Below, one piece after another: positions 14,893 through 32,156 of a stretch of DNA of 64,000 bases. The translations under genes were made by a program, and so were the position numbers. The notes below the pieces were generated by a model. The model saw only the letters and a program-made list of their open reading frames with translations. It was not told the DNA's origin and made no database searches. Origin of the DNA: Sphingomonadaceae bacterium. Its GTDB lineage: Bacteria > Pseudomonadota > Alphaproteobacteria > Sphingomonadales > Sphingomonadaceae. Numbering within the stretch: the first letter of the stretch is position 1; every line of letters starts with the position of its first letter. The stretch covers positions 1-64,000 of the forward strand of contig JAJUHA010000006.1 of NCBI GenBank assembly GCA_029268145.1, written 5' to 3'.

Positions 14893-15264
14893 ATGGCAAA
14901 CCAACATCACGGCCTCGACCGCGCCTTTGCCGCCCTTGCCGACCCGACGCGCCGGGCCATCGTCGCGCGGCTGAGCAGGGGCGAGGCGGCGGTCAGCGCT
15001 CTCGCCGAGCCGTTCGCGATCGGGCTGCCCACGCTGCTGAAGCACATCCGGGTGCTGGAGCGCAGCGGCCTTGTTGCCACCGCCAAGTCCGGGCGGGTGC
15101 GCCGGTGCGCGCTCGTGCCGGATGCGCTGCGCGAGGCCGAGGCCTGGCTCGGCGCCCACATCACCGCCTGGGAAAGCCGGCTCGACCGGCTGGAGGCGCA
15201 TCTTGCCGACAAGGAAAGGAAGGCCGGACATGACCCTGCACGCGACACCCGATGCGACCTCTGA
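14893..15264 (+). CDS. ArsR family transcriptional regulator
   Basis: 123 aa winged-helix protein: LDRAFAALADPTRRAIVARL, then the recognition region FAIGLPTLLKHIRVLERSGL and wing VATAKSGRVRRCALV. No ArsR metal-site CxC is present, so it belongs to the branch paired with AHSA1/START-domain proteins. The neighbouring SRPBCC gene overlaps its 3' end by 35 bp. The upstream 180 bp also separate it from the divergent ABC export operon, so it could regulate either. Confidence 0.92.
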   Translation: MANQHHGLDRAFAALADPTRRAIVARLSRGEAAVSALAEPFAIGLPTLLKHIRVLERSGLVATAKSGRVRRCALVPDALREAEAWLGAHITAWESRLDRLEAHLADKERKAGHDPARDTRCDL

Positions 15265-15879: not shown

Positions 15880-16503
15880 TCAGCCGTGCAGGCTCATCAG
15901 CTGGTCCATCAGATTCTCCTCCGCGCTCGAGCAGACGCCAAGCACGAGCGCTTCGTCGCAGCCCTCCGCCACCACATAGGCGTGGCCCATGGAGGAATCT
16001 AGATAGATGCCCTCGCCCGTCTCGAGCACCACCGGATCGTAGAATTCGGAGTGGACCTCGATCCGTCCCTCGAGCACGAACACGAACTCCTCGCCCTGGT
16101 GGCGGACGAGCTCGCCGAACTCGTCGACGCTGCGCGCGCGGATCCGGGTGAGGATCGGGATCATCCGCTTTCGGCGCAGGTCGGTGCACAGATAGTGGTA
16201 ATCATAATTGTCCGTGACCACGCGGACGGCCCGATCCCGGACGGCAAGGCTGCGCCGGCCGGTCACCACCGGAGCCGTCTCCTCCGGGCCGTCGGCGAAG
16301 AGATCGGACATGCGGATCTCGAGCTTGCGACTGAGCTGCTGAAGCTTGTCATAGGACAGGGTGAGCCGGTCATGCTCGACCTTGGAAAGCGTCGAGACCG
16401 GAATGCCGCAGCGCTCGCTCATCTGCTTGAGCGTCCAGCCGTTGCGGGCGCGGATGCCGCGCATCACCTGGCCGAGCGTGGGCGGCGCTCGCCGATCGCT
16501 CAT
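15880..16503 (-). CDS. XRE family regulator with cupin sensor domain
   Basis: 207 aa. N-terminal Cro/CI-type HTH (TLKQMSERCGIPVSTLSKVE at about residues 23-42) and C-terminal cupin (ELVRHQGEEFVFVLEGRIEV, then GIYLDSSMGHAYV). This architecture is used for sensing small metabolites such as amino acids or polyamines. It is divergent from the D-amino-acid operon across a 133-bp gap and is the natural candidate for its regulator. The start at 16503 has GAGGA six bases upstream; an upstream in-frame ATG at 16557 has no ribosome binding site. Confidence 0.9.
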   Translation of the reverse strand: MSDRRAPPTLGQVMRGIRARNGWTLKQMSERCGIPVSTLSKVEHDRLTLSYDKLQQLSRKLEIRMSDLFADGPEETAPVVTGRRSLAVRDRAVRVVTDNYDYHYLCTDLRRKRMIPILTRIRARSVDEFGELVRHQGEEFVFVLEGRIEVHSEFYDPVVLETGEGIYLDSSMGHAYVVAEGCDEALVLGVCSSAEENLMDQLMSLHG

Positions 16504-16636
16504 GCCAGTCCTCGGCGGGGAGAAGCGGATTTTCCAGTCAGGACCATTATTCTCCATTCAGGTTGCAATGCTGCCCGCAATTGGTAAGGGTTTCCGCCAT
16601 CCCCCGCAAGCTGCGGCGGCCAGACGGGAGACGGGC

Positions 16637-18646: not shown

Positions 18647-19644
18647 TGCCGCGCCGAACGGTCCGCCTGACGCTGGAGCGGTTCGCCTACCGCCAGCCGT
18701 TCCGGATCTCCGGCCACGTCTTCGTCGAGGCGCGCCTTCTTGTCGCCGCGATCACCGAAGACGGGCGGACCGGCCGCGGCGAGGGAGCCCCGGTCTATTT
18801 CCTGGGAGAGGATGCCGACCACATGCTGGCCGAAGCGGAGCGGGTCACGCCCGCCATAGCCGACGGCTGCAGCCGCGCAACGCTGCAGGCGCTGCTTCCA
18901 GCCGGCGGAGCGCGCAATGCGCTCGACTGTGCGCTGTGGGATCTCGAGGCGAAGCTGACCGGCACGCCGGCGTGGGCGCTGGCCGGGCTGGCCCGGCCGC
19001 CGCAGCCGCTGCGGTGCGTGCTGACGCTCGGCGCGGACACGCCGGAGCGGATGGCCGAGGCAGCCGCTGCGCTCGACCCGGCCGCGCCGATCAAGGCGAA
19101 GCTGACCGGCGAACCGGCGCTCGATGCGGCACGCCTGGAAGCCCTTCGGGCTGCGAGGCCAGAGGCCTGGATCGGCGTCGATGCGAACCAGGGCTTCGAC
19201 CGCGCGGGCCTGCTGCAACTCCTGCCCGTGCTGGAGACCCTGAAGATCGCGCTGGTGGAGCAGCCGTTGCGGCGTGGCGACGAGGCCGCAATGGAGGGTC
19301 TGCCGAGGGGCATTCCGTTCGTGGCCGACGAGAGCGCCCTCACGCTCCTCGACACGGACCGGCTGCCCGGCCGGTTCGCGATGGTCAACATCAAGCTCGA
19401 CAAGTGCGGCGGCCTGACCGAGGCGCTCCTAATCGCCCGCCGGGCCCGCGACCTCGGACTTCGCCTGATGGTCGGGAACATGGTGGGCTCCAGTCTGGCG
19501 ATGGCGCCCGGCTTCCTCCTCGGCCAGCTCTGCGACCTGGTCGACCTCGATGGCCCGACCTTTCTTGCCGCCGACCGGGACCCGGCCGTCACCTACCACG
19601 CGGGCTGCATCCATTGCCCGCAGGCGCTCTGGGGCTTCCCATGA
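18646..19644 (+). CDS. dgcA: N-acetyl-D-glutamate racemase / dipeptide epimerase (enolase superfamily)
   Basis: 332 aa. Enolase-superfamily catalytic set is intact: KAK (Lys150/Lys152), metal ligands Asp179 (GVDANQG), Glu205 (VEQPL) and Asp228 (VADES), and the second Lys250 (NIKLDKCGG). This matches L-Ala-D/L-Glu epimerases. Adjacency to a DUF1611 gene indicates the DgcN-DgcA pathway, in which DgcN N-acetylates D-glutamate and DgcA racemises the product so it can enter L-glutamate metabolism. A dipeptide epimerase role in murein peptide recycling is the alternative. Start overlaps the previous stop (TGATG); stop overlaps dgcN (ATGA). Confidence 0.85.
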   Translation: MPRRTVRLTLERFAYRQPFRISGHVFVEARLLVAAITEDGRTGRGEGAPVYFLGEDADHMLAEAERVTPAIADGCSRATLQALLPAGGARNALDCALWDLEAKLTGTPAWALAGLARPPQPLRCVLTLGADTPERMAEAAAALDPAAPIKAKLTGEPALDAARLEALRAARPEAWIGVDANQGFDRAGLLQLLPVLETLKIALVEQPLRRGDEAAMEGLPRGIPFVADESALTLLDTDRLPGRFAMVNIKLDKCGGLTEALLIARRARDLGLRLMVGNMVGSSLAMAPGFLLGQLCDLVDLDGPTFLAADRDPAVTYHAGCIHCPQALWGFP

Positions 19645-20762
19645 CATGCCCCGGCCAGACCCACGGCGCCGCGGAAGGGGGCGGGACTCCGGATGAGGCC
19701 GGGGCCGTGGCGCGACACGCCGGGCCCGCGCGGAGCGAGGGAGCGCCAGCCGGCCTCGACCTGCCGCACCCCTATCTGCTGTTCCTGGGCGACGTGACCG
19801 AGCCCGCCTTCGCCAAGACCGCGCTGGGTCTCGCCGACTGGGCTCCCGAGCGCTGCGTGGGCGAGCTCGCCCTGCCCGGCGCGGCCGTCTCGACCGGGCT
19901 GCCGCGGCTGACCCCCGCCGAGGCGCTTGTCGCCGGCGCGCGCGCCCTGGTCATCGGCGTGGCGAACCAGGGCGGCCGCATCCCCGAGACATGGGTTGCC
20001 GCGCTGACCGAGGCGCTGGAGGCAGGCCTCGACATCATCAGCGGCATGCATGTCCGGCTGGAAAGCTTCCCGGCGCTGGTGACGGCGGCCGGGCGGCATG
20101 GCCGCCGGCTCGTCAACGTCCGCACGCCGCCCGAAGGGATCCCCGTGGGCACCGGCCGGAAGCGCACCGGCAGGCGCCTGCTGACCGTCGGCACCGACTG
20201 CGCGCTGGGAAAGAAATACACCGCGCTCGCCCTGCATCGCGCGTTCCGCGCCCGAGGCATCGACGCCGACTTCCGCGCCACCGGGCAGACCGGAATCCTC
20301 ATCGCCGGCCGGGGAATTCCCATGGACGCCGTGATCGCCGACTTCGAGGCCGGAGCTGCCGAGATGCTGAGCCCCGACGCGCCGCCCGACCACTGGGACA
20401 TCATCGAGGGCCAGGGGTCGCTGTTCAACCCGGCCTATGCCGCCGTCTCGCTCGGTCTGCTCCATGGCAGCCAGCCCGACCTGTTCGTCGTCTGCCACGA
20501 TCCGACGCGGGACTGGATGCTCGGGCTGGACGGCTATGCCCTGCCGGACGTCGAGGAGGTGATCGATCTCACCGTCCGGCTCGGCCGGCGCACCAATCCG
20601 GCCATCCGCTGCGCGGGCGTCAGCCTGAACACCAGCGGGCTTTCGGCCGAGGCCGCGGCCGCCCTGATCGCGGCGGAGCGCGCCCGTCTCGGCCTTCCGG
20701 TGGCCGACCCGGTGCGCGGCGGACCGCCGTTCACCGAACTGGTCGACGCCTGCCTGGCATGA
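19641..20762 (+). CDS. dgcN: DUF1611 protein, DgcN-type D-amino acid N-acetyltransferase
   Basis: 373 aa. After a 45-residue low-complexity start the DUF1611 sequence begins (PYLLFLGDVTEPAFAKTALG). It has the Rossmann-like first half and a P-loop-like second half (LLTVGTDCALGKKYTALALH, FRATGQTGILIAGRGIP, IIEGQGSLFNPAYAAVS). DUF1611 proteins paired with an enolase-type epimerase have been assigned as D-glutamate N-acetyltransferase. Translationally coupled to dgcA and to the following transporter (ATGA overlaps on both sides). The N-terminal extension may be overcalled, but no better start is visible. Confidence 0.82.
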   Translation: MTCPGQTHGAAEGGGTPDEAGAVARHAGPARSEGAPAGLDLPHPYLLFLGDVTEPAFAKTALGLADWAPERCVGELALPGAAVSTGLPRLTPAEALVAGARALVIGVANQGGRIPETWVAALTEALEAGLDIISGMHVRLESFPALVTAAGRHGRRLVNVRTPPEGIPVGTGRKRTGRRLLTVGTDCALGKKYTALALHRAFRARGIDADFRATGQTGILIAGRGIPMDAVIADFEAGAAEMLSPDAPPDHWDIIEGQGSLFNPAYAAVSLGLLHGSQPDLFVVCHDPTRDWMLGLDGYALPDVEEVIDLTVRLGRRTNPAIRCAGVSLNTSGLSAEAAAALIAAERARLGLPVADPVRGGPPFTELVDACLA

Positions 20763-21910
20763 CAGCACCAGGCCCGACGTCCGGCGCCGCGGGCGGCCGC
20801 AACTGGTTCGGCCGCTTCCTCCTGCCTGGCCTCGCGCTCAAGGGCGTCATCATCGGCGGTGGCTATGCGACCGGTCGCGAGCTCGCCGAGTTCTTCTCGC
20901 CGGCCGGCCCGCTGGGCGGCCTTCTCGCCATGCTGCTCGCCACGCTGGTGTGGAGCGCGGTGGCGGCCAGCACCTTCGCGCTGGCGCAGCACTGGCAGCT
21001 CTACGACTACCGGCGCTTCTTCCGCCGGCTGCTCGGGCGCGGCTGGCTGCTGTTCGAAGGTGCCTACCTGCTGTTCGTCGTCCTCATCCTTGCGGTGTTC
21101 GGCGCAGCGGCCGGGGAGATCGCGTCCCAGACCCTCGGCTGGCCGGCGGCCGCCGGCTCGCTCGCGCTGGCGGCCGTCATCCTGCTCGCCACCGTTGCCG
21201 GCGAAACGGGGGTCGAACGGCTGCTTCGCCACGCCTCGGCGCTCATCTATGGCACCTATCTCCTGTTCATCCTTTTCGCCCTTGTCCGGCTCGGCGACCG
21301 GATCCTCGCCGGCCTCGCATCCCAGCCGGCGGTCACTCCTGCCTGGCTTCCCGGCGGGATCACCTACGCGGCCTACAACATCGTCGGAGCGGTGATCATC
21401 CTGCCGATGCTCCGGCACCTCAGGGACCGGCGCGATGCCGTGGTGGCAGGCGCGCTCGCCGGCCCGATGGCGATGCTGCCGGCCATGCTCTTCTTCCTCG
21501 CGATGCTGGCGTTCCACCCCGAAATCGCCAACGAGCCGCTCCCTTCGGCCTTTCTGCTCGAGCAGATGGCGGTGCCCGGCCTCGCCCTGCTGTTCCAGAT
21601 CATGATCTTCGCCGCGCTGGTCGAAAGCGGCGTTGGCGCCGTCCACGCCATCAACGAGCGGGTGTCGGGAACGCTCGAGGCCGGCGTGGGCCGCCCGCTC
21701 GGCACAGGCGGCCGGCTGCTCGTCGGCGGGCTGGTGCTTGCCGGATGCATGATGGTGGCCGGGCGGCTGGGGCTCGTGGAGCTGATCGCCTCCGGCTACC
21801 GTCTGCTCGCCGGGATCTTTCTTGCCGTCTTCGTCCTCCCCGTGCTGACACTGGGCCTCGCCCGTCTGCGCAGGGCGGACCGTGCGACCGCGATGGAGAC
21901 TTCGCCATGA
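20759..21910 (+). CDS. YkvI-like membrane transporter (APC superfamily-like)
   Basis: 383 aa, about ten hydrophobic segments. The first helix holds a glycine-rich motif (LKGVIIGGGYATGRELAEFF) typical of YkvI-like transporters related to amino acid/Na+ symporters. Its position between dgcN and a serine hydrolase, with ATGA overlaps to both, suggests inner-membrane import of the D-amino acid or small peptide handled by this operon. Substrate direction and coupling ion are inferred, not seen. Confidence 0.8.
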   Translation: MTAPGPTSGAAGGRNWFGRFLLPGLALKGVIIGGGYATGRELAEFFSPAGPLGGLLAMLLATLVWSAVAASTFALAQHWQLYDYRRFFRRLLGRGWLLFEGAYLLFVVLILAVFGAAAGEIASQTLGWPAAAGSLALAAVILLATVAGETGVERLLRHASALIYGTYLLFILFALVRLGDRILAGLASQPAVTPAWLPGGITYAAYNIVGAVIILPMLRHLRDRRDAVVAGALAGPMAMLPAMLFFLAMLAFHPEIANEPLPSAFLLEQMAVPGLALLFQIMIFAALVESGVGAVHAINERVSGTLEAGVGRPLGTGGRLLVGGLVLAGCMMVAGRLGLVELIASGYRLLAGIFLAVFVLPVLTLGLARLRRADRATAMETSP

Positions 21911-23481
21911 TCCTGGTCCGCCTTGCCGCCCTGCTCCTGCTGGCTCTGCCGGTGCCAGTCCGCGCCGCCCCTCCGCCCGACCTCGACATCCGGGTCGAGG
22001 CGCTGCGGCAGAAGGTCGGGGCCGTCGGCGTTGCCATCACGATCGTCGAGGGCGAAGCAGTCACGTTGGCGCGGGGATGGGGGGTGCGCCGGTTGGGGGA
22101 TCCCGCACCGGTCGATGCCGACACGCTGTTCGAGACCGGATCGACCGGAAAGGCCGTGACGGCGGCGGCGCTCGCGGTGCTGGTGGACGAAGGCCGGATC
22201 GGGTGGGATGATCCGGTCATCCGGCACCTGCCCTGGTTCCGGATGCACGATCCCTGGGTGACCCGGGAGATCAGCATCAGGGATCTCCTGGTCCATCGCA
22301 GCGGCCTTGGCCTCGGTCAGGGGGACCTGCTGTTCGTGCCGCGGTCCCGCCTGTCGCGGCGGGAGACGGTGGAGCGGGTCGCACACCTGCGGCCGAAGAC
22401 GAGCTTCCGCTCCACCTACGCCTACGACAACATCCTCTATGCGGTCGCCGGACAGCTGATCGAGGAGGTGAGCGGCCAGCGCTGGGAGGAGTTCGTGCGC
22501 GACCGCGTGCTGCGCCCGGGCGGAATGGCCACCGCCACCAGCGACAGCGACGAACATCTTCGCAATCCCAACCGCGCCCACCCGCACGCCCGGCTTTCCG
22601 GGCCAGTCCGAGGCCTCGGGCCGCAGCAGCTGCTCGACGAGCGCGAAGGGCTCGGCCGGGCCGCGGCGCCTGCCGGCGGCCTCGCCTTCAGCGCCAGGGA
22701 CCAGGCGGCCTGGCTGCGGCTCCAGCTGGCGCGGGGTGCATTGCCGGGCGGTGGGCGGCTGCTGAGCGAGCAGCAGCTGGCCGAAACCTGGAAGCCGGTG
22801 ACGATCATGCCGCAGAGCCAGCTTCCCGAGCCGCTCCGTCTGGCGCAGCCGGGCTTCCAGGCCTATGCGCTCGGCTGGCAGGTGCAGGACTATCGCGGGC
22901 ACCGGATGCTCGTCCACGGCGGGGCGGTCTTCGGCGCGATTGCCCGCGTGGTCATCCTGCCGGACCGCAACGTGGCATTCGCCATCATGATGAACTCGGA
23001 AGACAGCGGGCTGTTGCTCGGGCTGACCTACATGCTGGTCGACCATTGTCTCGGCCTGCCCGACCCGGGCTGGACCGAGCGGTGGCAGGCCTGGTACGAG
23101 GCGCGGCTGCAGGCCAGCGCGCGCCTCGCGCAGGCACCGGCCGCCGCGCCGGCGCAGGTCGGACCATCGCTCCCTCTCGCCCGCTATGCCGGCCGCTACC
23201 GCGATCCCTGGTATGGCGATGTCGTGATCGGCCACGGGCCCGAGGGCCTGACCATCGATTTCACCACCAACCCGGGCATGACCGGGCGGCTGAAGCACTG
23301 GCAGTATGAGAGCTTCGTCACTGCGTTCGACGACCCCGGCATCGAGCCGGCGCACGTGACCTTCCTGCTCGATGCCGACGGGCGCGTGAGCGGGGTCAGC
23401 CTGCGCCGGGTCAACCCGATGGCCGATTTCAGCTGGAACTACCAGGATCTCGAGCTCCGTCCGGTGCCGGCGGCCAACTGA
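21907..23481 (+). CDS. Secreted serine hydrolase (beta-lactamase/D-aminopeptidase family)
   Basis: 524 aa with a signal peptide (MILVRLAALLLLALPVPVRA). The catalytic motifs are STGK (Ser79/Lys82), YDN in TYAYDNILYAV, and HGG in LVHGGAVFG. The C-terminal 110 residues form a lipocalin-like DUF3471-type domain (LARYAGRYRDPWYGDVVIG). This is a second and different peptidase/esterase of the same superfamily as the first gene of the operon, without membrane helices, so it is likely periplasmic. It ends the operon and converges on a truncated TonB receptor. Confidence 0.88.
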   Translation: MILVRLAALLLLALPVPVRAAPPPDLDIRVEALRQKVGAVGVAITIVEGEAVTLARGWGVRRLGDPAPVDADTLFETGSTGKAVTAAALAVLVDEGRIGWDDPVIRHLPWFRMHDPWVTREISIRDLLVHRSGLGLGQGDLLFVPRSRLSRRETVERVAHLRPKTSFRSTYAYDNILYAVAGQLIEEVSGQRWEEFVRDRVLRPGGMATATSDSDEHLRNPNRAHPHARLSGPVRGLGPQQLLDEREGLGRAAAPAGGLAFSARDQAAWLRLQLARGALPGGGRLLSEQQLAETWKPVTIMPQSQLPEPLRLAQPGFQAYALGWQVQDYRGHRMLVHGGAVFGAIARVVILPDRNVAFAIMMNSEDSGLLLGLTYMLVDHCLGLPDPGWTERWQAWYEARLQASARLAQAPAAAPAQVGPSLPLARYAGRYRDPWYGDVVIGHGPEGLTIDFTTNPGMTGRLKHWQYESFVTAFDDPGIEPAHVTFLLDADGRVSGVSLRRVNPMADFSWNYQDLELRPVPAAN

Positions 23482-23521
23482 CGGCGGCAGCGGCGCGAGC
23501 CCGCCTGGAACCTGGCCGAAG

Positions 23522-24424
23522 CTAGAACCGCACCCCGAACATCGCGCCCAGCGTGCGCGGCCGGATCGTGGTGGCGGTGGCCAGCTGCACGCCATTGCCG
23601 CCAATCGCGGGCAGAACCGCGAAGGGAAACTCGCCCGCGGACACGATGCCGTAGCTGTCGGTGAGGTTGCGGCCGTACATCGCAACGCTGAACCGGCCGA
23701 ACTCGACTCCGGCGCGGACGTCGAGCGTGACATAGCCGTCGATCTCGATGGGGCGGCCGAAGGCGGTGCGATAGGCCGAGTTGAAGCCGCCGGTCTGGTC
23801 CCCCATGATGCGGATGCTGGTGCCGACATAGGCGAGCACCGCATCGGCGAGGCGGAAGTCGTAATCGGCGCTCAGGCTGGCCGATACGCGCGGCGTATAG
23901 GGCAGCCGGTCGCCGGCGAGCCCGCCGGTCAGGTTGGCGCCGCCACCCGGCGGAACCGTGTCGTCAAGAAGCTTTGCGTCCGTGATCGCGGTGTTGGCGA
24001 TCATCGTCAGCCCGTCGGCGGAGCGAAGGGTGAGCGTTGCCTTTAGCCCCTGGCTGCGCGCGCGCCGGCCATTGCTGTTGACGCCGACCGGGCCGGCGGC
24101 CGTCGTCACGGTGGAGGTGATCAGGATGTCGTCCCAGTCGAGATGGAACAGCGCGAGATCGAGAACCGCGCTGCGATCCAAGGTCTGGGCGCGCAGCCCC
24201 ACCTCGTAGCGCGTGACGGTATCGGCGCTGAACTCGGTGGGATAGTCGGCGGGGGCGCCCGGCGGCACGAAGTTGGGACCGCCCGGGCGATAGCCCCTGG
24301 CGATCCGGGCATAGACCGAGGCCGCGCCGCTGAGGTCGAAGCGGGGCGCGACCGACCAGGTCCACACGCCCTCCGACGAGCCTCCGTTCTGCGGCGCGCC
24401 ATTGTTCCTGCCTCGGGAATTGTT
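23522..24424 (-). pseudogene. TonB-dependent receptor, C-terminal barrel fragment (5' end missing)
   Basis: The frame encodes about 300 residues of the outer-membrane barrel end: IARGYRPGGPNFV, TRYEVGLRAQTL, ALFHLDWDDILI, RSQGLKATLTLR, MYGRNLTDSYG and a terminal Phe (GAMFGVRF) as needed for BAM insertion. Moving upstream the frame hits a TGA at 24425-24427, and there is no plug domain, TonB box or signal peptide, so more than half of the gene is gone. The break lies at the edge of the CRISPR region. It may once have been the outer-membrane importer of the neighbouring operon. Confidence 0.85.
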
Positions 24425-24791
24425 TCAGCCCTGTCGAGTTTTCACAGTTTTCCCACTCGTGCGGGGATGTGGTTCATGTCTGCCGCGCAACAAGCCGGTG
24501 GTGAGAAAGAGCGGGCGGGAGGATAGGCCGGGCGGGCGGTGTAGGACAGCCGGAGGCGGCGATGGTTTGTGCGCAGCACAAATCCACGACTCGCCGAAGG
24601 CCTGGCCGGCCGGTTGGCGGCGGAGCCGGCAAGCCGGACCGACAGGCGGGCTTTGCCCGCAAGTCCTGTTCCCTGTCTTGCTGCTTCCCCAGGACTCGGC
24701 GGCTTGGCCGCCGGCCGGGGCGCTCAACCGCCTGCCGCGTTTGCGGCGATCCGTTTCGGGCTCGGGCGAAGCCCGGGACCGAAGCGGATCT
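24425..24791. other. Hairpin-rich noncoding stretch on the leader side of the CRISPR array
   Basis: No gene recognised. It holds a run of inverted repeats: TTTGTGC-GCA-GCACAAA (24566-24582); GCGGGC-TTT-GCCCGC (24646-24660); AGTCCTG/CAGGACT (24662-24668 with 24690-24696); GGCGGC-TTG-GCCGCC (24698-24712); GCCGC-GTTT-GCGGC (24734-24747); and a 12-bp imperfect stem GATCCGTTTCGG / CCGAAGCGGATC (24748-24759 with 24779-24790) ending one base before the first repeat. Since the array is read on the plus strand, this is the expected leader position. An A/T-richer patch lies at 24418-24450. Confidence 0.5.
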
Positions 24792-25157
24792 GCTGCGGAT
24801 TGCAGCCCTTTCTCGTTCTGCTAGAACCGGCCCAATCTGGGCGATCCGCGTCCTGCCGCTGCGGATTGCAGCCCTTTCTCGTTCTGCTAGAACGGGCAGG
24901 AAGCAGCGCGCGTCCAGTCGGCGGCTGCGGATTGCAGCCCTTTCTCGTTCTGCTAGAACACCGCTGGGCACGGATGGGCTCGTGCTGATGCTGCGGATTG
25001 CAGCCCTTTCTCGTTCTGCTAGAACGGCAATGCGGGGAGAAAAACAGCGACTCTTGCTGCGGATTGCAGCCCTTTCTCGTTCTGCTAGAACCGAGGGCCG
25101 GGTCATCGGACGCTACACCTCGCTGCGGATTGCAGCCCTTTCTCGTTCTGCTAGAAC
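24792..25157 (+). CRISPR. Type II-C CRISPR array, six 36-bp repeats and five 30-bp spacers
   Basis: Six identical 36-bp repeats start at 24792, 24858, 24924, 24990, 25056 and 25122; all five spacers are exactly 30 bp and unique. Each repeat begins GCTGCGGATTGCAGCCC and ends CTCGTTCTGCTAGAAC. The plus strand is the sense strand, because repeat bases 11-34 pair with the tracrRNA anti-repeat at 29696. The array is therefore convergent with the cas genes. The repeat end TTCTGCTAGAAC is a good extended -10 box, as in the repeat-encoded promoters of other II-C arrays. Both repeat ends are small palindromes (GCTGC/GCAGC and GTTCT/AGAAC). Confidence 0.98.
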
Positions 25158-25159
25158 TG

Positions 25160-25193
25160 CCCTCGCGTAGCCGGTTGGAAACGCGGGGGTTTT
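25160..25193 (+). terminator. Probable terminator of the CRISPR array
   Basis: Two bases after the last repeat, CCCTCGCG (25160-25167) pairs with CGCGGGGG (25182-25189), an 8-bp stem with one G-U, loop of 14 nt, followed directly by TTTT (25190-25193). On the plus strand this fits an intrinsic terminator that would stop array transcripts before they run antisense into cas2. Confidence 0.5.
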
Positions 25194-25205
25194 CCTGATT
25201 GGGCA

Positions 25206-25577
25206 TCAGAAAAGCTGGAGCTGGGCGGGGGCTGGGGCGGGGTTTTCGCGCTTTTTTCCGACATAGACCCTGATCCGGCCGAACTGGTTGTCGGTGATGG
25301 TGAGGAAACGGACCTCGCCCTTTTCGGGCACTTTGGCGCCCATGCGGGTGGCGTGAAGCTCGGCATTGTCGACGGACGCACAGTGGCGGATGTAGATCGA
25401 GAATTGCATCATGGTGAAGCCGTCTTCCAGAAGATCTTTCCGAAAGCGGGCATAAGCGCGGCGGGCAGCTTTCGTGTCGACCGGCAGATCGAACATGGCA
25501 ATCACCCACATGCTCCGCCACCCCCAGGGCTGGATGGGATAGCGCGGCGGCGGTTCAGGCCGCGCCATCTTCGACAA
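25206..25577 (-). CDS. cas2: CRISPR-associated endonuclease Cas2
   Basis: 123 aa. Ferredoxin-like Cas2 fold with the first strand and metal Asp (MWVIAMFDLPVDTK), RRAYARFRKDLLEDGFTMMQ, SIYIRHCAS and RFLTITDNQFGRIRVYVG. Works with Cas1 to capture and integrate spacers. The N-terminus is about 20 residues longer than minimal Cas2. Start can be 25577 or the Met at 25568; either overlaps the cas1 3' end. It is the last gene of the cas9-cas1-cas2 operon, 49 bp from the array. Confidence 0.95.
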   Translation of the reverse strand: MSKMARPEPPPRYPIQPWGWRSMWVIAMFDLPVDTKAARRAYARFRKDLLEDGFTMMQFSIYIRHCASVDNAELHATRMGAKVPEKGEVRFLTITDNQFGRIRVYVGKKRENPAPAPAQLQLF

Positions 25578-26487
25578 GATCGGGTTGCAGGGGCAGGCTT
25601 TCCGGCACCAACAGCGCGTCCCGGTCGTTGAGTGTCAGCGCCTTCGCGAGACTTGCGGCAGACTGCTCGATGCCGAGGAGGAGAGGCCAGCGCTTGCCGC
25701 CCACGAGGATGGTGTCGTTGAAGATGGTGAGGAGGGCGGCGCGCGTCCGCCGGTCATCGAGGCTGGGAGCGGTCTCGCCGGCGACGCAAAGGCCGCGCAC
25801 CTTCCAGTCGACAATGGGGCGCCACGGCTCCAGAAGGTCATCGGCGAGGCAGAAGGGGTTGGCGCGGTTGCGGTGCCAGACGCCGAGCGACGGGATGAGG
25901 CCCGAGGCGACGAGGGCGCGGGCGCAGGCGGCGCGGACGATGGCGTAGCCGTAGTTGAGCAAGGCGTTGGTGCCATCGGCGGCGCGGTCGCGGCGGAAAT
26001 CCCTGCCGAACAGCCTCGGCCAGTAGCGCTGGGCGCCCTGGGCCTCGAAATTGTCCGGGTCTCCGGAGCGGACGCGGCCGGCGAGCGCCGTGAGGCCGGC
26101 GTCATCGGATCCGGCTTCCTTCAGCACGCGGCCCTGCTGGCGGAGCTTGGCGGCGACGAGCGCCTGCCAGAGGCGCTTGCGTAAAGGGGCTCCGGCTTCC
26201 ACCTGGGCCCAGTGTCGCTCCGTGAGCGCATGGTGCCCTTCCATGGGGAGCATCATGCCGGCCGGCAGGTGATCACGGCCAGTGACGATGACGGTGGCGC
26301 CGGCTGCCAGACATTCGATGAAGACGGCCTGGGTGTAGCTGGCACGGCCGTCGTCCACGACGAGGACGCCGAGGTCCTCGATGGGGACAGTGGCTTTAGG
26401 GAGTTCCGGGCGTTCGATGACAAGCTGGCGATGGGCGACCGACAGGCGGGTGCCGGGGGTGGCGATCTCGATGGTCTTGCGCAGCAT
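25555..26487 (-). CDS. cas1: CRISPR-associated integrase Cas1
   Basis: 310 aa, type II subtype. The three metal-binding residues are present at positions matching well-studied type II Cas1: Glu148 (PDNFEAQGAQRYW), His205 (GVWHRNRANPF) and Glu220 (ADDLLEPWRP). N-terminal beta domain and C-terminal helical domain are complete. The ATG at 26487 overlaps the cas9 TGA by one base (TGATG). There is no csn2 or cas4, as expected for subtype II-C. Confidence 0.97.
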   Translation of the reverse strand: MLRKTIEIATPGTRLSVAHRQLVIERPELPKATVPIEDLGVLVVDDGRASYTQAVFIECLAAGATVIVTGRDHLPAGMMLPMEGHHALTERHWAQVEAGAPLRKRLWQALVAAKLRQQGRVLKEAGSDDAGLTALAGRVRSGDPDNFEAQGAQRYWPRLFGRDFRRDRAADGTNALLNYGYAIVRAACARALVASGLIPSLGVWHRNRANPFCLADDLLEPWRPIVDWKVRGLCVAGETAPSLDDRRTRAALLTIFNDTILVGGKRWPLLLGIEQSAASLAKALTLNDRDALLVPESLPLQPDLVEDGAA

Positions 26488-29400
26488 CAGTCATGTGCCG
26501 AATGGATACGGCCGATGGGATCGATGGCGACCTTGCGTCCGCCGGATTTCAGGATGGACGCGGCGGTGGGGCGGAAGACGCTGGTGCCGGTCGCGTCTTC
26601 GGCGCGCCAGAGCACGATTGGCCCTGCCGCCCAGACACCCTGGACGATCCAGAGGCCATTCAGCTTGCCGTCCGGGAAGTGGAGCGTGTCTCCTTGCGCG
26701 AGCGACATGACGAAGGCGGCGTTTTCGCGTTGCCTTGCGATGGGCGGCAGGCGCTTTCGAAGGCGATCTGCGGCTTCGAGCAGGCTGACGATCTCGGTTT
26801 CGACGGTGCCATCCGACAAGCGGAAGATGGCGGCATGATGGTTGTTGCCGAGATCGGCGTAGCCGTTCCTCAGTTTCGCCATCAGCTTTTTCTGCTGCTT
26901 CACGCGGATGCGGACCTTGCGGATGGGGGCGCCGCCTTCCGAGACGGTGGGATAGCCGTTGAGGAAGGCCTTCTTCGGGTCGCCGCCGTGGCTCTCGACC
27001 CATGCGCGCACGGTGTCGCGGATGTGGGGGTCGGGCCAGGCATCGTCGTCGGCGAGAAGGGACTTCGTGAGCATCTCGACCGGCTTTCGGGTGGTGAACC
27101 AGCGGTAGGCGACCTTGCCGGTGCCTTCGGCGGGGCCGGCGTCGCCGTAGGTCGTGTCCTTGTGCAGCGGCCCCGACACCTTGCGGCGGACGCGGTGGGA
27201 CACGATGATTTCGCCGACCCTGGCCTGGGCCTGTGCGCGGACATCCGGGAAGGGCGGATCGAGCGCGGGGGGTGGGGGACGCGAGGGATCGTCCTTCTGC
27301 TGGAAGAAGAGGGAGAGGGTCTGGGTGTAGCCGGGGTGGGCGAGTGCGACGACGAGGGCGTCGATGGCGTGGTGGCGATGGTCGGCGCGGGTCTTTTCGC
27401 CATCATCGGACAAGATGTTGTTGAGGCCCCAGCGGCGGCGCAGTTCGGCGGTGACGCGGCCGGAGAGGGTTGCGACCTTCACCTCGCCCTGCTGCCCGAG
27501 ATCGGGGAAGAGCTGCTTCAGGAAGCCGACGGCTTGCCTTGCGGCATAGCCGGTGTCGGTCAACTGGCGGGAGGCGAAATCTTCGGGCGGGGGTTCGCGG
27601 AAGCGGCGGTCCTTGCGCCAGCCGGGGCCGTAGCGGTCGTCGAAGTTGCCGACGCGCTTCACGACTTCGGCCAGCTCGTCGGGCCTGCCGTCGTAAAGCT
27701 CCAGGGGGGTGCGGTTGGATTTCCGGAGGTTGATGTCCTTCCGGCACAGCGTCTTGTTGGCGAAACTGTCGTCGAGGCTCTTCCAGCGGGGCCAGATATG
27801 CTCGACCTCGAAGGCGCCGTCGCGGAAGAGGGCGGCGAAGCTGATCTCGGCTCCGGTGTAGGGACAGATGTGGCGGCACTCTTTCCAGAGGAGCCACTTC
27901 TCGATGTCGGCGCGGGTGGGTTCGGCGATGCCCTTGGACTGGAGGTCGGCGATGGCTTCCTTGCGGACCTTTTCGCGGTTGCGGTTGCGCTTCGTGTCTT
28001 CGGCGCGTTCGCGGGCGGACTTGCCGACTTCGCGGGCGACTTCGACGCGGATGCGGTCGGGCTTGCCGTAGACGCCGATGAGGTTGTTGACGACCTTGCG
28101 CAACTCATTCTGGACGCGAAGCACGGTGGGGTTGCGGACGGCCTTCTGGCGGTCGATCTCCTCCCTGCTGTTGCCCGGTGTCGGCAGGCGATCGACCCAT
28201 GAGCCGGTGGGCTGCACGCGGTTGGGGAAGGTGGCGGCGCGCCAGCCTTCCTCCTCGGGGCTGGCGAGGAGGCTGCCGAAGATCGCGCCCTGCTGGAGGC
28301 GCGGCAGGAAGGCTTGGAGCGCCTCGGTTGAGAAGGGTTCCCAGCCGGGGGCGAAGGTGAGGCCGGCGAGGCGGTCCGCCTGTTCGTCGGTGAGGGCGAA
28401 GTCGGCCTTGAGCGCTTCGCGGGCCTTCTGGCGCTCGGTGCGGCGCTCGGCTTCGCGGCGAATGACGATGCGGCCGCCGATCTCGCCATAGTCGGCCTTG
28501 AAGAGGCGGGCGTGGATTTCGCGGCGCAGGCGATCCCGCAGGTCGGGCTCGGCTTCCCAGCGGTCGGCCATGATGGCGGCGAGGCGGTTTTCGAGGCGGT
28601 TGCCGACGAGGCCCTTTTCCCCGCCGCGCTCAAGGTTGAAGCTGGGCTTCTCGGGCATGGCGTTCTTGCGCCAGTAGAGCTTCAGGTGCCGGTGGATGCC
28701 TGACCAGGTGACGCTGTCCTGCTTACGGAGGAGGGCCAGGATCGCGGCGCGTTCGTTCTCGTCGAGCGGCCGGCCATTTCCGTCCTCGATGCGGAGAGTG
28801 TTGAGCTTTTCCAGCATCCGCTTTTCCTGGGCGATCCAGGAGGCGGAGGCGGCGAGATCGGCACCGGGCACGAAGCGGCATTTGCCGAGCGTGGCCCGGC
28901 GCCAGAAGACGGGCTTCTGATCGAAGATCGTCTGTTCGAGACAGGCGGTGAAGGTCGGATCGCTGAGGCAGGGGTGGTGCGGGGACTGGGCGGCGAGGAG
29001 GGCGCGGAACTCGGCGACGACATCTTCGCGGGCGAAGTGGTGGTGGCGGCGGCGGCCTTCCGGGATTGTCGTCTTCTCGCCTTTCTTGCGCTTCCCCACC
29101 ACGGGGATGGTGGCGAGATAGGCGCCCAGCGTGAGGCTGGAGGCCTTGAGGGACGCACGGTCGATGTCGCGCTTGCTGGCGGCGGCCTTTTCGTCGGCGG
29201 CGGGCTCTTCCTTCTTCTGCGCGACGCCGATCTCGGCGTCTTCCAGGTCGCGGCCGCGGAAATGGCGGCGCTGGGCGAGATGGTAGAGGGCGCGGCCCAG
29301 TTCGTGCGGGGTGAGTGGCTCATGGAGCGCACGGGCGCGGAGCGCCCATGGGTCGGCCGCCATGGCCGCGGCCCAGGGCGAGCCCTTTTCCTTGCCGAAG

Positions 29401-29660
29401 GAGGGCAGAAGGCCGGCTTCGGCGAGGAGGGTGTTGAGGCTGCGGCGGCGCATCCGGCGGCGGCGGAGCTGGCGGCGCATCAAGCGGCGCTTGCGGCGCT
29501 CCTGGTTCCAGGGAATGCCATCCGGATCGCGCGCCTCGGGGAAAATGCGGGTGCCGAGGTGGAGAATTTCGCCGGTGCCGGCGGCGGTGTCGAGGCGGAC
29601 GACGGCGGAGCCGATGGACGTGGTGCCGATGTCGAAACCGAAAATGAGTTCTGATGCCAT
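26487..29660 (-). CDS. cas9: CRISPR-associated endonuclease Cas9, type II-C
   Basis: 1057 aa, compact as usual for II-C. RuvC-I FGFDIGTTSIGSAVV with Asp10; Arg-rich bridge helix at residues 52-75 (RRKRRLMRRQLRRRRMRRRS); recognition lobe to about 490; RuvC-II RIRVEVARE with Glu540; HNH domain with CPYTGAEISF, VEHIWPRWKSLDDSFANKTL carrying His621 and Asn635; RuvC-III DHRHHAIDALVVALAHP with His764 and Asp767; then wedge and PAM-interacting region to the end. All nuclease residues are kept, with Glu620 where SpCas9 has Asp before the HNH His. Start at 29660 follows GGGGAGG (29667-29673). tracrRNA is divergent immediately upstream. Confidence 0.98.
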   Translation of the reverse strand: MASELIFGFDIGTTSIGSAVVRLDTAAGTGEILHLGTRIFPEARDPDGIPWNQERRKRRLMRRQLRRRRMRRRSLNTLLAEAGLLPSFGKEKGSPWAAAMAADPWALRARALHEPLTPHELGRALYHLAQRRHFRGRDLEDAEIGVAQKKEEPAADEKAAASKRDIDRASLKASSLTLGAYLATIPVVGKRKKGEKTTIPEGRRRHHHFAREDVVAEFRALLAAQSPHHPCLSDPTFTACLEQTIFDQKPVFWRRATLGKCRFVPGADLAASASWIAQEKRMLEKLNTLRIEDGNGRPLDENERAAILALLRKQDSVTWSGIHRHLKLYWRKNAMPEKPSFNLERGGEKGLVGNRLENRLAAIMADRWEAEPDLRDRLRREIHARLFKADYGEIGGRIVIRREAERRTERQKAREALKADFALTDEQADRLAGLTFAPGWEPFSTEALQAFLPRLQQGAIFGSLLASPEEEGWRAATFPNRVQPTGSWVDRLPTPGNSREEIDRQKAVRNPTVLRVQNELRKVVNNLIGVYGKPDRIRVEVAREVGKSARERAEDTKRNRNREKVRKEAIADLQSKGIAEPTRADIEKWLLWKECRHICPYTGAEISFAALFRDGAFEVEHIWPRWKSLDDSFANKTLCRKDINLRKSNRTPLELYDGRPDELAEVVKRVGNFDDRYGPGWRKDRRFREPPPEDFASRQLTDTGYAARQAVGFLKQLFPDLGQQGEVKVATLSGRVTAELRRRWGLNNILSDDGEKTRADHRHHAIDALVVALAHPGYTQTLSLFFQQKDDPSRPPPPALDPPFPDVRAQAQARVGEIIVSHRVRRKVSGPLHKDTTYGDAGPAEGTGKVAYRWFTTRKPVEMLTKSLLADDDAWPDPHIRDTVRAWVESHGGDPKKAFLNGYPTVSEGGAPIRKVRIRVKQQKKLMAKLRNGYADLGNNHHAAIFRLSDGTVETEIVSLLEAADRLRKRLPPIARQRENAAFVMSLAQGDTLHFPDGKLNGLWIVQGVWAAGPIVLWRAEDATGTSVFRPTAASILKSGGRKVAIDPIGRIHSAHD

Positions 29661-29662
29661 GC

Positions 29663-29690
29663 TTGACCTCCCCGTTCATGATGCTAGCAT
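29663..29690 (+). promoter_or_regulatory. Promoter of the tracrRNA gene
   Basis: TTGACC (29663-29668) and TAGCAT (29685-29690) with a 16-bp spacer place the start at about 29697, exactly where the anti-repeat begins. The -10 lies in a 10-bp perfect palindrome ATGCTAGCAT (29681-29690), and the -35 overlaps the cas9 ribosome binding site on the other strand. Confidence 0.65.
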
Positions 29691-29693
29691 GAA

Positions 29694-29702
29694 AATCTAG
29701 CA
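29694..29702 (-). promoter_or_regulatory. Candidate cas9 promoter (extended -10) inside the anti-repeat
   Basis: On the minus strand the anti-repeat reads like a CRISPR repeat and keeps its extended -10, TGCTAGATT (29702 to 29694). A start about 7 bases on (near 29687) would give a leader of about 27 nt containing the GGGGAGG site before the cas9 ATG. No clear -35 is seen, as is common for extended -10 promoters. Confidence 0.4.
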
Positions 29703-29820
29703 GAACGAGAAGGGGCTGCTTTTCGCAAGCAAATGCTTCTTCGTGTGGGCTCGGCATCCCAAGAGCAAGTGCCGGTTCTTGCGGCGCTCCCGGCAAACGG
29801 GGGCGCCGCAAATCGTTTGG
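29696..29820 (+). ncRNA. tracrRNA of the type II-C system
   Basis: The 24 bases at 29696-29719 (TCTAGCAGAACGAGAAGGGG then CTGC) are complementary to repeat positions 11-34 with a single G-U. Downstream: GCTT-TTCGC-AAGC hairpin (29718-29730); a stem TGCTtCTT / AAGAGCA enclosing the GGGCTCGGCATCCC block; TCGGCA (29751-29756) able to pair with TGCCGG (29770-29775); and a 12-bp terminal hairpin GCGGCGCTCCCG / CGGGGGCGCCGC (29781-29809) followed by AAATCGTTT. The blocks TTTTCGCAAGC and GGGCTCGGCATCCCAAG resemble, from memory, the tracrRNA of Parvibaculum lavamentivorans. It ends just before the clpA stop. Confidence 0.9.
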
Positions 29821-29825
29821 GGTGC

Positions 29826-32156
29826 TCAGGCCTTGTCTTCGGCGGTTTCCGCGGGCTTCCGGCGGCGGGCCTTCTTCTTCGGGGCGGCCGGAGTGATCTC
29901 GAAGGCGAGCTTCCCGTCCTTGAGGTGCACGCGGACTTCGCCGCCATGGACCAGCTTGCCGAACAGGAGCTCGTCGGCAAGCGGGCGCTTGATCTCCTCC
30001 TGGATGAGGCGGGCCATCGGCCGGGCGCCGTAGAGCCGGTCGTAGCCGCGCTCGGTGAGCCAGGCCTTGGCCTCGTCCGAAAGGCTGATGTGGACGTCGC
30101 GGTCGGCCAGTTGCAGCTCGAGCTCGAGGATGAACTTGTCGACGACGCGGGCGACCACCTCGGGCGGGAGATAGTCGAAGGCGACGACGGCATCGAGCCG
30201 GTTGCGGAACTCGGGCGAGAACATCCGCTTGATGGCTTCCTGATCCTCGCCCTCGCGGGTGGTGGCGCCGAAGCCGATCGCCTCGCGCGCCATGTCGGCG
30301 GCGCCGGCGTTGGTCGTCATGATGAGGATGACGTTGCGGAAATCGACCGTCTTGCCGTGGTGGTCGGTCAGCTTGCCCGCATCCATCACCTGGAGGAGGA
30401 TGTTGTAGAGGTCCGGGTGGGCCTTCTCGATCTCGTCGAGGAGGAGCACGCAGTGCGGGTTCTGGTCGACCGCGTCGGTCAGGAGACCGCCCTGGTCGAA
30501 GCCGACATAGCCCGGAGGCGCGCCGATGAGACGGCTGACCGAGTGCCGCTCCATATATTCCGACATGTCGAAGCGGTGGAGCGGGATGCCGAGGAGGGCG
30601 GCGAGCTGCCGCGCCACCTCGGTCTTGCCAACGCCGGTGGGGCCGGAGAAGAGGTAGGAGCCGATGGGCTTGTTGGGGTCGCGCAGCCCCGCGCGGCTGA
30701 GCTTGATGGCCGAAGCGAGCTGGGTGATCGCCGCGTCCTGGCCGAAGACAACCCGCTTCAGGTCGGTCTCGAGCGTGTGGAGCAGCTTCTTGTCGTCGGT
30801 CGAGACCGACTTGGGCGGGATGCGCGCCATGGTGGCAACCACCGCCTCGATTTCCTTCACGCCGATCACGCGCTTCCGCTTGGCCTCGGGCAGCAGCATC
30901 TGCGCCGAGCCGGACTCGTCGATGACGTCGATCGCCTTGTCGGGGAGCTTGCGGTCGTTGATGTAGCGCGCCGCGAGCTCGACCGCCGACTTGATGGCAT
31001 CGGGCGTGTAGCGGACGCGGTGGTGCTTCTCGAAGGCGGCCTTGAGGCCGGTCAGGATCTTGACCGTGTCCTCGACCGAGGGCTCGTTGACGTCGATCTT
31101 CTGGAAGCGGCGCAGCAGCGCGCGATCCTTCTCGAAATGGTTGCGGAATTCCTTGTAGGTGGTCGAGCCGATGCAGCGGATGGTGCCGCCCGAGAGCGCC
31201 GGCTTCAGCAGGTTGGACGCATCCATCGCCCCGCCCGACGTGGCGCCGGCACCGATCACCGTGTGGATCTCGTCGATGAAGAGGATGGCGTGGGGCAGCT
31301 TCTCGAGCTCGGCCACGACATTCTTCAGCCGCTCCTCGAAATCGCCGCGGTAGCGCGTGCCGGCGAGCAGCGCGCCCATGTCGAGCGCGTAGATGACCGC
31401 CGGGCGGAGCACGTCGGGCACATTGCCCTCGACGATCTTGCGGGCGAGCCCCTCGGCGATCGCGGTCTTGCCCACGCCGGGATCGCCGACATAGAGCGGG
31501 TTGTTCTTGGAGCGGCGGCAGAGGATCTGGATCGTGCGGTCGACCTCGGCCTCGCGGCCGATGAGCGGGTCGATCCGGCCGGACCTCGCCTTCTCGTTCA
31601 GGTTCACCGTGAACTGCTTCAGCGCTGATTCGGGCTGCTTCCTCCCGTCCTGCTTCTTCTCCTCGCGCTGGGCCTCCTCCTCGGTGCCGCGCGGGGTCTT
31701 GGGCTCGGACATGCCGGGCGACTTGGCGATGCCGTGGCTGATGTAGGAGACGGCGTCGAGCCGGGTCATGTCCTGCTGCTGGAGGAAATAGACGGCGTGG
31801 CTCTCGCGCTCGGAGAAGAGCGCGACGAGGACATTGGCCCCCGTCACTTCCTCTCGGCCGGAGGACTGGACATGGAGGATGGCGCGCTGGACGACGCGCT
31901 GGAAGCCGGCGGTGGGGGAGGGATCGACGCTCGAATCGGCCCTGAGCGATCCCAGCTCGGTATCGAGGTAGCGGGTCACCTGGGCGGAGAGCTCGTCGAG
32001 GTCGACTCCGCAGGCCTTCATCACGACCGAGGCGTGGGTGTCGGTGGTCAGCGCCAGGAGGAGATGTTCGAGGGTTGCATATTCGTGCCGGCGGCGGCTG
32101 GCCTCGGCCAGCGCGTTGTGGAGGGTGGTCTCGAGGTCGCGGGAGAAGGAGGGCAT
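29826..32156 (-). CDS. clpA: ATP-dependent Clp protease ATP-binding subunit ClpA
   Basis: 776 aa. ClpN repeats (ETTLHNALAEASRRRHEYAT, then GFQRVVQRAILHVQSSGREE), an acidic/Lys linker at about residues 145-175, AAA1 with Walker A GDPGVGKTAIAE and Walker B ILFIDEIHT, and AAA2 with GPTGVGKTEVAR and LLLDEIEKAHPD. Feeds unfolded substrates to ClpP in the cytoplasm. The C-terminus is a Lys/Ala-rich tail (PKKKARRRKPAETAEDKA). The adaptor gene clpS, which usually precedes clpA, is not upstream here. Confidence 0.96.
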   Translation of the reverse strand: MPSFSRDLETTLHNALAEASRRRHEYATLEHLLLALTTDTHASVVMKACGVDLDELSAQVTRYLDTELGSLRADSSVDPSPTAGFQRVVQRAILHVQSSGREEVTGANVLVALFSERESHAVYFLQQQDMTRLDAVSYISHGIAKSPGMSEPKTPRGTEEEAQREEKKQDGRKQPESALKQFTVNLNEKARSGRIDPLIGREAEVDRTIQILCRRSKNNPLYVGDPGVGKTAIAEGLARKIVEGNVPDVLRPAVIYALDMGALLAGTRYRGDFEERLKNVVAELEKLPHAILFIDEIHTVIGAGATSGGAMDASNLLKPALSGGTIRCIGSTTYKEFRNHFEKDRALLRRFQKIDVNEPSVEDTVKILTGLKAAFEKHHRVRYTPDAIKSAVELAARYINDRKLPDKAIDVIDESGSAQMLLPEAKRKRVIGVKEIEAVVATMARIPPKSVSTDDKKLLHTLETDLKRVVFGQDAAITQLASAIKLSRAGLRDPNKPIGSYLFSGPTGVGKTEVARQLAALLGIPLHRFDMSEYMERHSVSRLIGAPPGYVGFDQGGLLTDAVDQNPHCVLLLDEIEKAHPDLYNILLQVMDAGKLTDHHGKTVDFRNVILIMTTNAGAADMAREAIGFGATTREGEDQEAIKRMFSPEFRNRLDAVVAFDYLPPEVVARVVDKFILELELQLADRDVHISLSDEAKAWLTERGYDRLYGARPMARLIQEEIKRPLADELLFGKLVHGGEVRVHLKDGKLAFEITPAAPKKKARRRKPAETAEDKA

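What the first reader, a model, noticed from the sequence alone, without database searches (positions are those of the whole stretch)
24792..29820. Complete compact type II-C CRISPR-Cas9 system with identifiable tracrRNA
One 5-kb block holds an intact 1057-aa Cas9 (all RuvC and HNH residues seen: D10, E540, H621, N635, H764, D767), Cas1 with E148/H205/E220, Cas2, a clean six-repeat array and a tracrRNA whose anti-repeat pairs over 24 bases with the repeat. The system looks functional and self-sufficient. Cas9 carries Glu before the HNH His where SpCas9 has Asp. The PAM and target range cannot be read from this sequence.
Basis: partly seen in the sequence, partly recalled or inferred. Interest (0 to 1): 0.75.

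Follow-up and report, generated by a model that had tools for sequence, protein, structure and literature searches.

The report
Intact type II-C CRISPR-Cas9 locus
A small-genome bacterium carries a complete, apparently working but ordinary CRISPR-Cas9 immune system of a known subtype, from an uncharacterised family of Cas9s whose guide RNA keeps a knot also seen in the presumed ancestor of Cas9.

Summary
Window 24792-29811 holds six identical 36-nt repeats with five 30-nt spacers, cas2, cas1, a 1057-aa cas9 and a divergent tracrRNA. The catalytic residues are present, but the HNH Asn is N644, not N635; repeat:anti-repeat pairing is 32 bp, not 24. The Glu before the HNH His is a clade marker (17 of 17 Cas9s aligned).

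Array and tracrRNA run on the + strand, opposite to the cas genes. By published II-C rules the acquiring end faces cas2, each repeat carries a promoter, and the 19-bp hairpin before the oldest repeat silences a useless guide.

The locus belongs to a sporadic clade (16 further loci, mostly alphaproteobacterial metagenome bins, cas9 40-74% identical) and was not found in four congeners.

The window's own spacers gave no credible protospacer, so its PAM is unproven.

New member of a known kind.

The parts
24748..24790 (+). 19-bp hairpin ending 1 nt before the oldest repeat; would sequester the guide of the extraneous crRNA
   Evidence: -40.6 kcal/mol for 24735-24791, z -5.1, 0 of 200 shuffles as stable; similarly strong hairpins in L038, L049, L051, so 4 of 10 arrays folded; mechanism published in PMC12080349
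24792..25157 (+). CRISPR array: six identical 36-nt repeats, five 30-nt spacers; crRNA sense is +
   Evidence: direction from the tracrRNA
25160..25193 (+). inverted repeat plus T-run between newest repeat and cas2 stop: probable terminator of the array transcript, lying in the leader / acquisition region
   Evidence: sequence; cas2-to-repeat stretches of 14 loci printed, where most near-clade loci keep the CCCTCGCGT/ACGCGAGGG inverted repeat (read by eye)
25206..25577 (-). cas2 (123 aa)
   Evidence: TIGR01573 61 bits; PADLOC Cas2_II 144 bits
25555..26487 (-). cas1 (310 aa), type II
   Evidence: TIGR03639 238 bits; PADLOC Cas1_II 308 bits
26487..29660 (-). cas9 (1057 aa), type II-C
   Evidence: TIGR01865 567 bits; RuvC_III and HNH_4; model closest to ThermoCas9 and Nme1Cas9, Z 29.3 and 28.9
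29663..29690 (+). tracrRNA promoter-like site TTGACC-16-TAGCAT with TG before the -10; its -35 overlaps the cas9 ribosome-binding site
   Evidence: only promoter-like hit in 24350-30000, 0.3 expected; TTGACCTCC kept in 8 of 8 near-clade loci (read by eye)
29698..29811 (+). tracrRNA: anti-repeat, nexus with pseudoknot, terminator-like hairpin
   Evidence: duplex with repeat 32 bp; nexus and pseudoknot; covariance model R1 119.9 bits

Best explanation
It is a functional type II-C CRISPR-Cas adaptive immune locus. Shown by sequence: operon cas9-cas1-cas2 on the minus strand; tracrRNA divergent from cas9 with its own sigma70-like promoter; array in the same sense as the tracrRNA, read towards cas2. 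Inferred from the family: short crRNAs start from the promoter at the end of each repeat, pair with the tracrRNA, load Cas9, and Cas9 cuts DNA matching the spacer next to a 3' PAM with RuvC and HNH; Cas1-Cas2 insert new spacers at the cas2-proximal repeat; the hairpin at 24748-24790 silences the useless guide read from in front of the oldest repeat. The locus was probably gained horizontally, beside clpA.
For: Family models for all three proteins; intact active sites; dN/dS 0.12-0.22 for cas9 and 0.03-0.11 for cas1 and cas2 against six relatives; Cas9 model (mean pLDDT 79.5, pTM 0.50) matches II-C structures from end to end; own repeat:anti-repeat duplexes average -57.1 kcal/mol against -43.0 when swapped between 13 loci; tracrRNA nexus covaries; repeats are degenerate at the cas2-distal end in L040 and L042, as published for II-C (PMC12080349); spacers of L040, L042 and L051 match DNA of their own bins, in L040 and L042 partly phage-like; not found in four congeners, with synteny ending at or within 55 bp of the clpA 3' end in three.
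Against: No credible protospacer for any of the window's five spacers in phages, plasmids, IMG/VR seed scans or 397 family genomes; the best resemblances are 26 of 30. Use against real invaders is not shown. The array is short, and no expression data exist. The repeat -10 of this locus (TAGAAC) lacks the final T that 10 of 13 repeats compared have.
Confidence: 0.9

Rival explanations
1. The locus is intact in sequence but idle: cas genes or tracrRNA are not expressed, or acquisition has stopped, so the five spacers are relics.
For: Short array and no credible matching invader; no transcripts can be seen here.
Against: Six repeats without a single mismatch, intact genes under purifying selection across the clade, conserved tracrRNA promoter. 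Decay would be expected to touch the repeats or the anti-repeat.
Confidence: 0.12
2. crRNA and tracrRNA are read from the minus strand, in the direction of the cas operon.
For: The anti-repeat is complementary to the repeat on either strand, so pairing alone does not decide.
Against: A minus-strand tracrRNA would run into the cas9 start codon; the nexus, pseudoknot and terminator hairpin follow the anti-repeat on the + strand and covary; the sole promoter-like site points +; the three L040 protospacers share a motif on the 3' side expected for + reading.
Confidence: 0.03
3. The effector is a type II-D (Cas9d) or an IscB-like nuclease rather than II-C Cas9.
For: NCBIfam Cas9d matches residues 513-954 at 158 bits; the tracrRNA has an IscB-like nexus pseudoknot.
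Against: 158 bits is far below the Cas9d cut-off of 375 and below 567 bits for Cas9; 1057 aa; cas1 and cas2 are present, whereas II-D lacks them (PMC11706934, passages); best folds are ThermoCas9 and Nme1Cas9.
Confidence: 0.02

Closest known systems
Nme1Cas9 and ThermoCas9 type II-C systems
   Same: full-length Cas9 fold (Z 28.9 and 29.3, 27% identity); gene order cas9-cas1-cas2 and 36-nt repeats (Nme recalled)
   Different: Glu instead of Asp before the HNH His (the HNH structures aligned read EIDH; that they are Nme1 is recalled); different C-terminal domain, PAM unknown; nexus pseudoknot, not recalled for Nme1
EHCas9 (aquatic metagenome, 1070 aa, NGG PAM; PMC10281378, passages and section 21 read)
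   Same: II-C locus whose Cas9 is nearest to alphaproteobacterial ones; same gene order; tracrRNA upstream of cas9 and read in the direction of the array
Campylobacter jejuni type II-C system
   Same: promoter in each repeat, acquisition at the last repeat, hairpin in front of the oldest repeat (PMC12080349); some pairings in its guide RNA superpose on nexus pseudoknots (PMC9581776 passages)
   Different: 987-aa Cas9, model match Z 23.1 at 22% identity; triple helix in its guide RNA (recalled)
IscB omegaRNA nexus pseudoknot (PMC9640706 section 8 passages; PMC9581776 passages)
   Same: loop of a hairpin inside the nexus stem pairs with bases just downstream of that stem
   Different: omegaRNA scaffold is 206 nt with many more helices; here it is reduced to one 4-6 bp stem, a GGG:CCC hairpin and a 4-5 bp pseudoknot

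Membership tests
type II-C CRISPR-Cas | Cas9 with RuvC and HNH active sites | tested here: met
type II-C CRISPR-Cas | adaptation genes cas1 and cas2 only, no csn2 and no cas4 in the locus | tested here: met
   no room for another gene between 25206 and 29660; neighbours are a TonB-receptor fragment and clpA
type II-C CRISPR-Cas | tracrRNA with anti-repeat to the locus's own repeat | tested here: met
type II-C CRISPR-Cas | promoter within each repeat | tested here: inconclusive
   repeats end in TGCTANNNY in the near clade and in T in 10 of 13 compared, but the window's hexamer is TAGAAC and the promoter scan does not list it
type II-C CRISPR-Cas | new spacers added at the last (cas2-side) repeat | tested here: inconclusive
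   cas2-distal repeats are degenerate in L040 and L042, one mismatch in L047; the window's own repeats are all identical
type II-C CRISPR-Cas | RNA-guided DNA cleavage next to a 3' PAM | not testable with these tools
   only indirect: L040 protospacers with a shared 3' motif
type II-D (Cas9d) | Cas9d family model above cut-off | tested here: not met
   158 bits against a cut-off of 375
type II-D (Cas9d) | cas1, cas2 absent | tested here: not met
   cas1 and cas2 present
type II-A / II-B | csn2 or cas4 in the operon | tested here: not met
   no such gene between 24792 and 29825
IscB-like nexus pseudoknot RNA | nexus hairpin loop pairs with bases just downstream of the nexus stem | tested here: met
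   80 of 85 cells paired, 9 double-change cells, 0 of 2000 shuffles as good, 17 tracrRNAs, register set by eye; single loci alone are weak

The most novel reading that the evidence does not exclude
The locus belongs to an uncharacterised branch of type II-C whose tracrRNA retains a minimal IscB-type nexus pseudoknot as an essential part of the guide, whose HNH uses Glu where most other Cas9s compared have Asp, and whose members swap C-terminal domains to change PAM (N2TCAC-like in the L040 type, something else in the L041/L042 type).
Probability: 0.35. Interest if true: 0.55.

Novelty: new member of a known kind. Interest (0 to 1): 0.35.

Why it matters
It adds an intact, compact Cas9 (1057 aa) from a branch for which no experimental study turned up in the listings searched, with a predicted guide RNA and, for a near relative, a PAM lead. 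The covarying nexus pseudoknot would let one test directly how much of the ancestral omegaRNA core a working Cas9 guide still needs. Otherwise it is a routine type II-C locus.

Tried and rejected
Among 25 family loci held from that search the best are 26 of 30 (spacer 1, flank GCGCCCGA) and 25 of 30 (spacer 3, flank CTTCCCTG), the rest 18-24. Spacer 5 resembles a 2Fe-2S protein gene on a Pacificitalea plasmid at 26 of 30, flank CCGGATCG, E 6. None is credible, and none of these three has TCAC at positions 3-6. Two IMG/VR scans with spacers of L047 and L038 gave 0 and 2 contigs, the 2 at 19 and 21 of 30. No PAM can be given for this protein.

PAM from relatives: L040 gave three protospacers with GATCACAG, GATCACCG, GGTCACCG (six identical columns of eight, chance 3e-5; a shared run of four, chance 4e-4). 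These odds do not allow for five relatives' arrays having been tried. Against a clade-wide PAM: L051 gave CCTCACGC, which fits, and TCGAACAG, which does not; L042 gave GCAACCAA, TCCAAACC, TGTCGTCG and CTCCGTCC (30/31, 30/30, 28/30, 24/30), with no common motif beyond a pair (chance 0.13). A fifth L042 hit (sp27, 24/30, flank TCGGCGAG) was left out because its PAM-side bases mismatch. A weaker L040 sp20 hit (25/30) has GATGCG; L040 sp6 in an Arthrobacter phage (26/30) has GGACCTCG, against the motif. Other hits of 21-27 of 30 in named phages and plasmids, L048 hits at 24/30 in other bins and one L052 hit at 24/30 were set aside as unsure. The L048 and L047 arrays gave no protospacer in their own genomes that passed. 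A further search for L040 protospacers in 15 genomes of its family (its own included) added none judged real. A published set found the domain sequence not predictive of PAM (PMC10278012, passages), so transfer from L040 to the window is only a guess.

Domain swap: residues 976-1050 are 0.73-0.84 identical to L038, L039, L040, L047 but 0.39-0.43 to L041, L042, L052. In trees, joining L041 to the first type is rejected for that domain (p 0.002), but keeping all seven near relatives together is not (p 0.17), nor is an L041+L042 clade in the rest of the protein (p 0.058). The groups were named after seeing the identities. Recombination is suggested, not shown.

No Rfam family matches the tracrRNA, even at E 1. 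No Cas9 relative in IMG/VR. My first motif search missed the L046 tracrRNA; the covariance model found it, L045 and L053, none of them used in building it. L052 was left out of the Cas9 alignment A3 because its open frame covers only about residues 235-1057; L053 because it is partial. In the duplex swap test the own anti-repeat ranks first for only 6 of 13 repeats, since near relatives have nearly the same anti-repeat. The 60 nt folded for L041 were off by two bases, and for L040 they lie before its last perfect repeat, not before the degenerate one.
Full report
WHAT IS THERE. The window is part of contig 6 of a 2.66-Mb genome, 99.8% complete, in 82 contigs. Between a fragment of a TonB-dependent receptor (23522-24367) and clpA (29826-32156) lies one CRISPR-Cas unit: array 24792-25157, cas2, cas1, cas9 (all minus), and a tracrRNA on the + strand. 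cas9 and cas1 overlap by one base, cas1 and cas2 by 23 bases, so they probably form one operon.

IS IT FUNCTIONAL. The Cas9 family model gives 567 bits against a cut-off of 100; type II models fit Cas1 and Cas2. An AlphaFold model (mean pLDDT 79.5, pTM 0.50, 16 sequences) matches ThermoCas9 and Nme1Cas9 over the whole length (Z 29.3 and 28.9, rmsd 8.4 and 8.3 over 861 and 909 residues). Against six near relatives dN is 0.19-0.29 and dS 1.2-1.9 for cas9; 0.08-0.14 and 0.9-2.5 for cas1; 0.04-0.09 and 0.7-2.3 for cas2. High dS values are near saturation, so the ratios are rough, but selection against change is clear. Expression and activity are untested.

DIRECTION AND RNA. The repeat pairs with the anti-repeat at about 29696-29731 over 32 bp. 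Downstream of the anti-repeat on the + strand come a nexus and a strong hairpin, and upstream the only promoter-like site between 24350 and 30000 (TTGACC-16-TAGCAT with TG; 0.3 expected), which would start transcription at the anti-repeat. In 8 of 8 near-clade loci (window, L038-L042, L047, L052) the -35 reads TTGACCTCC (read by eye); in the window it is the complement of the cas9 ribosome-binding site. So the cas9 promoter must overlap the tracrRNA gene or share the palindromic -10 (ATGCTAGCAT in the window); that is inference. The array, in the same sense as the tracrRNA, is read + towards cas2. Repeats are degenerate at the far end in L040 and L042, so acquisition is probably at the cas2 side. 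This is the published II-C layout: spacers acquired through the last repeat, a promoter in each repeat, and an extraneous crRNA from the oldest repeat countered by a hairpin, a terminator or repeat mutations (PMC12080349: abstract, passages and section 18 seen). The window has the hairpin (24748-24790, z -5.1; z -6.9 for the 60 nt in front of the repeat). Of 10 arrays whose upstream flank was folded, 4 have such a hairpin (window, L038, L049, L051) and 6 do not (L040, L041, L042, L043, L046, L047); of those six, L040 and L042 have degenerate oldest repeats. L044 could not be folded (contig end) and arrays running off their stretch were not tried. An inverted repeat followed by Ts sits between the newest repeat and cas2 and probably ends array transcripts (25160-25193).

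RELATIVES. One scan of the species-genome collection found 16 loci with Cas9s 40-74% identical to the window's. Their hosts are metagenome bins named Porphyrobacter, Hyphomicrobiaceae, Hyphomicrobiales, Beijerinckiaceae, Alphaproteobacteria, Pseudomonadales and others, so by bin names the clade crosses orders. Cas1 and Cas2 are more conserved (81-87% and 84-95% in the near clade) than Cas9 (65-74%). In the window's family, 25 of 298 genomes have a Cas9 match at E <= 1e-20, mostly of another kind with Asp before the HNH His. Arrays with this repeat type match at E < 1e-20 in 5 of 397 family genomes: G000, G395 (contig length as L047), G378 (as L041), G231 and G260; the four other genomes of the genus, one of them 82% complete, show neither cas9 nor array. 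Synteny with three congeners runs from clpA upwards and stops at or within 55 bp of its 3' end; for 16000-24790 four congeners give only short matches, the longest 239 bases at 70%. Together this points to horizontal gain; the vehicle was not identified. Position 620 is Glu in all 17 clade members aligned and in 20 of 44 rows in all, Asp in 24; some rows are duplicates of one gene.

THE PSEUDOKNOT. Between the anti-repeat and the terminator each of the 17 tracrRNAs (window and L038-L053) reads: stem strand, some 5-9 nt, GGG, an 8-nt loop (CTCGGCAT in the window), CCC, stem strand, then TGCCG or its counterpart. The loop can pair with the bases just after the stem. Over these 17 a 4-bp core of the stem pairs in 68 of 68 cells with 30 double-change cells, and the pseudoknot in 80 of 85 cells with 9; no shuffle of 2000 does as well on the full sets (registers fixed by eye). 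The five failures are all at the fifth pair. For single loci the pairing alone is weak evidence (shuffles reach it in 35 to 576 of 2000, 15 loci); the covariation carries the case. Relatedness is not removed by this shuffle: with distinct rows only, n is 8 and 6, and 0 and 3 of 2000 reach the observed value. The same topology is the nexus pseudoknot of IscB omegaRNA, where changing the loop abolished editing (PMC9640706 passages), and some pairings of CjCas9 guide RNA are said to superpose on it (PMC9581776 passages); Cas9d has a kissing interaction of a similar kind (PMC11706934 passages). Listings for pseudoknot with tracrRNA and nexus, type II-C or CjCas9 and for 'nexus pseudoknot' or tracrRNA from 2023 on (ten of 2,526 shown) named no paper that reports it for tracrRNAs of this branch, and three Cas9 surveys do not use the word (PMC7606464, PMC3936727, PMC10278012). 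Most subscription journals are not covered.

PAM. The window's own spacers matched nothing credible. Arrays of five relatives (L042, L048, L040, L047, L051) were searched in their own and sister genomes. For L040, three spacers match at 27, 26 and 29 of 30, one on a contig with an integrase and two on a contig with Mu-like head and tail genes; the 3' flanks are GATCACAG, GATCACCG and GGTCACCG. Six of eight columns identical happens in 3e-5 of random draws from the same contigs, before allowing for the five arrays tried. L051 gave one fitting and one non-fitting flank, L042 four without a common motif, L048 and L047 none. Prophages that survive next to a matching spacer may carry escape changes, so flanks may mislead. 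The window's C-terminal domain is 70% identical to that of L040; an N2TCAC-like PAM is a lead worth testing, no more. That near relatives in II-C can differ in PAM is published (PMC9433092, abstract seen).

VERDICT. An ordinary but intact type II-C system of an uncharacterised branch. The nearest published enzyme met in the searches is EHCas9 (NGG PAM), which has Asp at the HNH position and whose sequence could not be compared here. Published guide RNAs of clades III, VI and IX are noted as longer and more diverse (PMC7606464 passages); this branch's place in that scheme was not tested.

Noticed in passing
window 23522-24367: TonB-dependent receptor fragment: only the C-terminal barrel (281 aa) is open, directly beside the CRISPR array; may be a remnant left by the rearrangement that brought the island.
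   Followed up: partly
window 16361-23481: Two open frames with PF00144 serine beta-lactamase-like domains (16361-18646, 20950-23481) flank a mandelate-racemase-like (MR_MLE) and a DUF1611 frame; only short matches in congeners. Function unknown.
   Followed up: partly
window 11950-14899: HlyD-family adaptor and an ABC transporter membrane protein side by side, a type I-like export pair.
   Followed up: no
window 29658-29690: The tracrRNA -35 element and the cas9 ribosome-binding site are the same bases on opposite strands, and the -10 is a perfect palindrome (ATGCTAGCAT), which suggests a shared or competing divergent promoter.
   Followed up: partly
L040 array 13179-13214 and L042 14035-14070: Degenerate oldest repeats at the cas2-distal end (9 and 3 mismatches).
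   Followed up: yes
L048 array, spacers 42 and 59 of the script's numbering: Two spacers of one array are 93% identical over 30 nt, as if related targets were sampled twice; a pair in L047 is 90% over 29.
   Followed up: no
L137 (G399 contig 45, 28000-39500): Mu-like prophage module (minor head, maturation protease, major head, tail) in the genome of L040, hit by two of its own spacers.
   Followed up: partly
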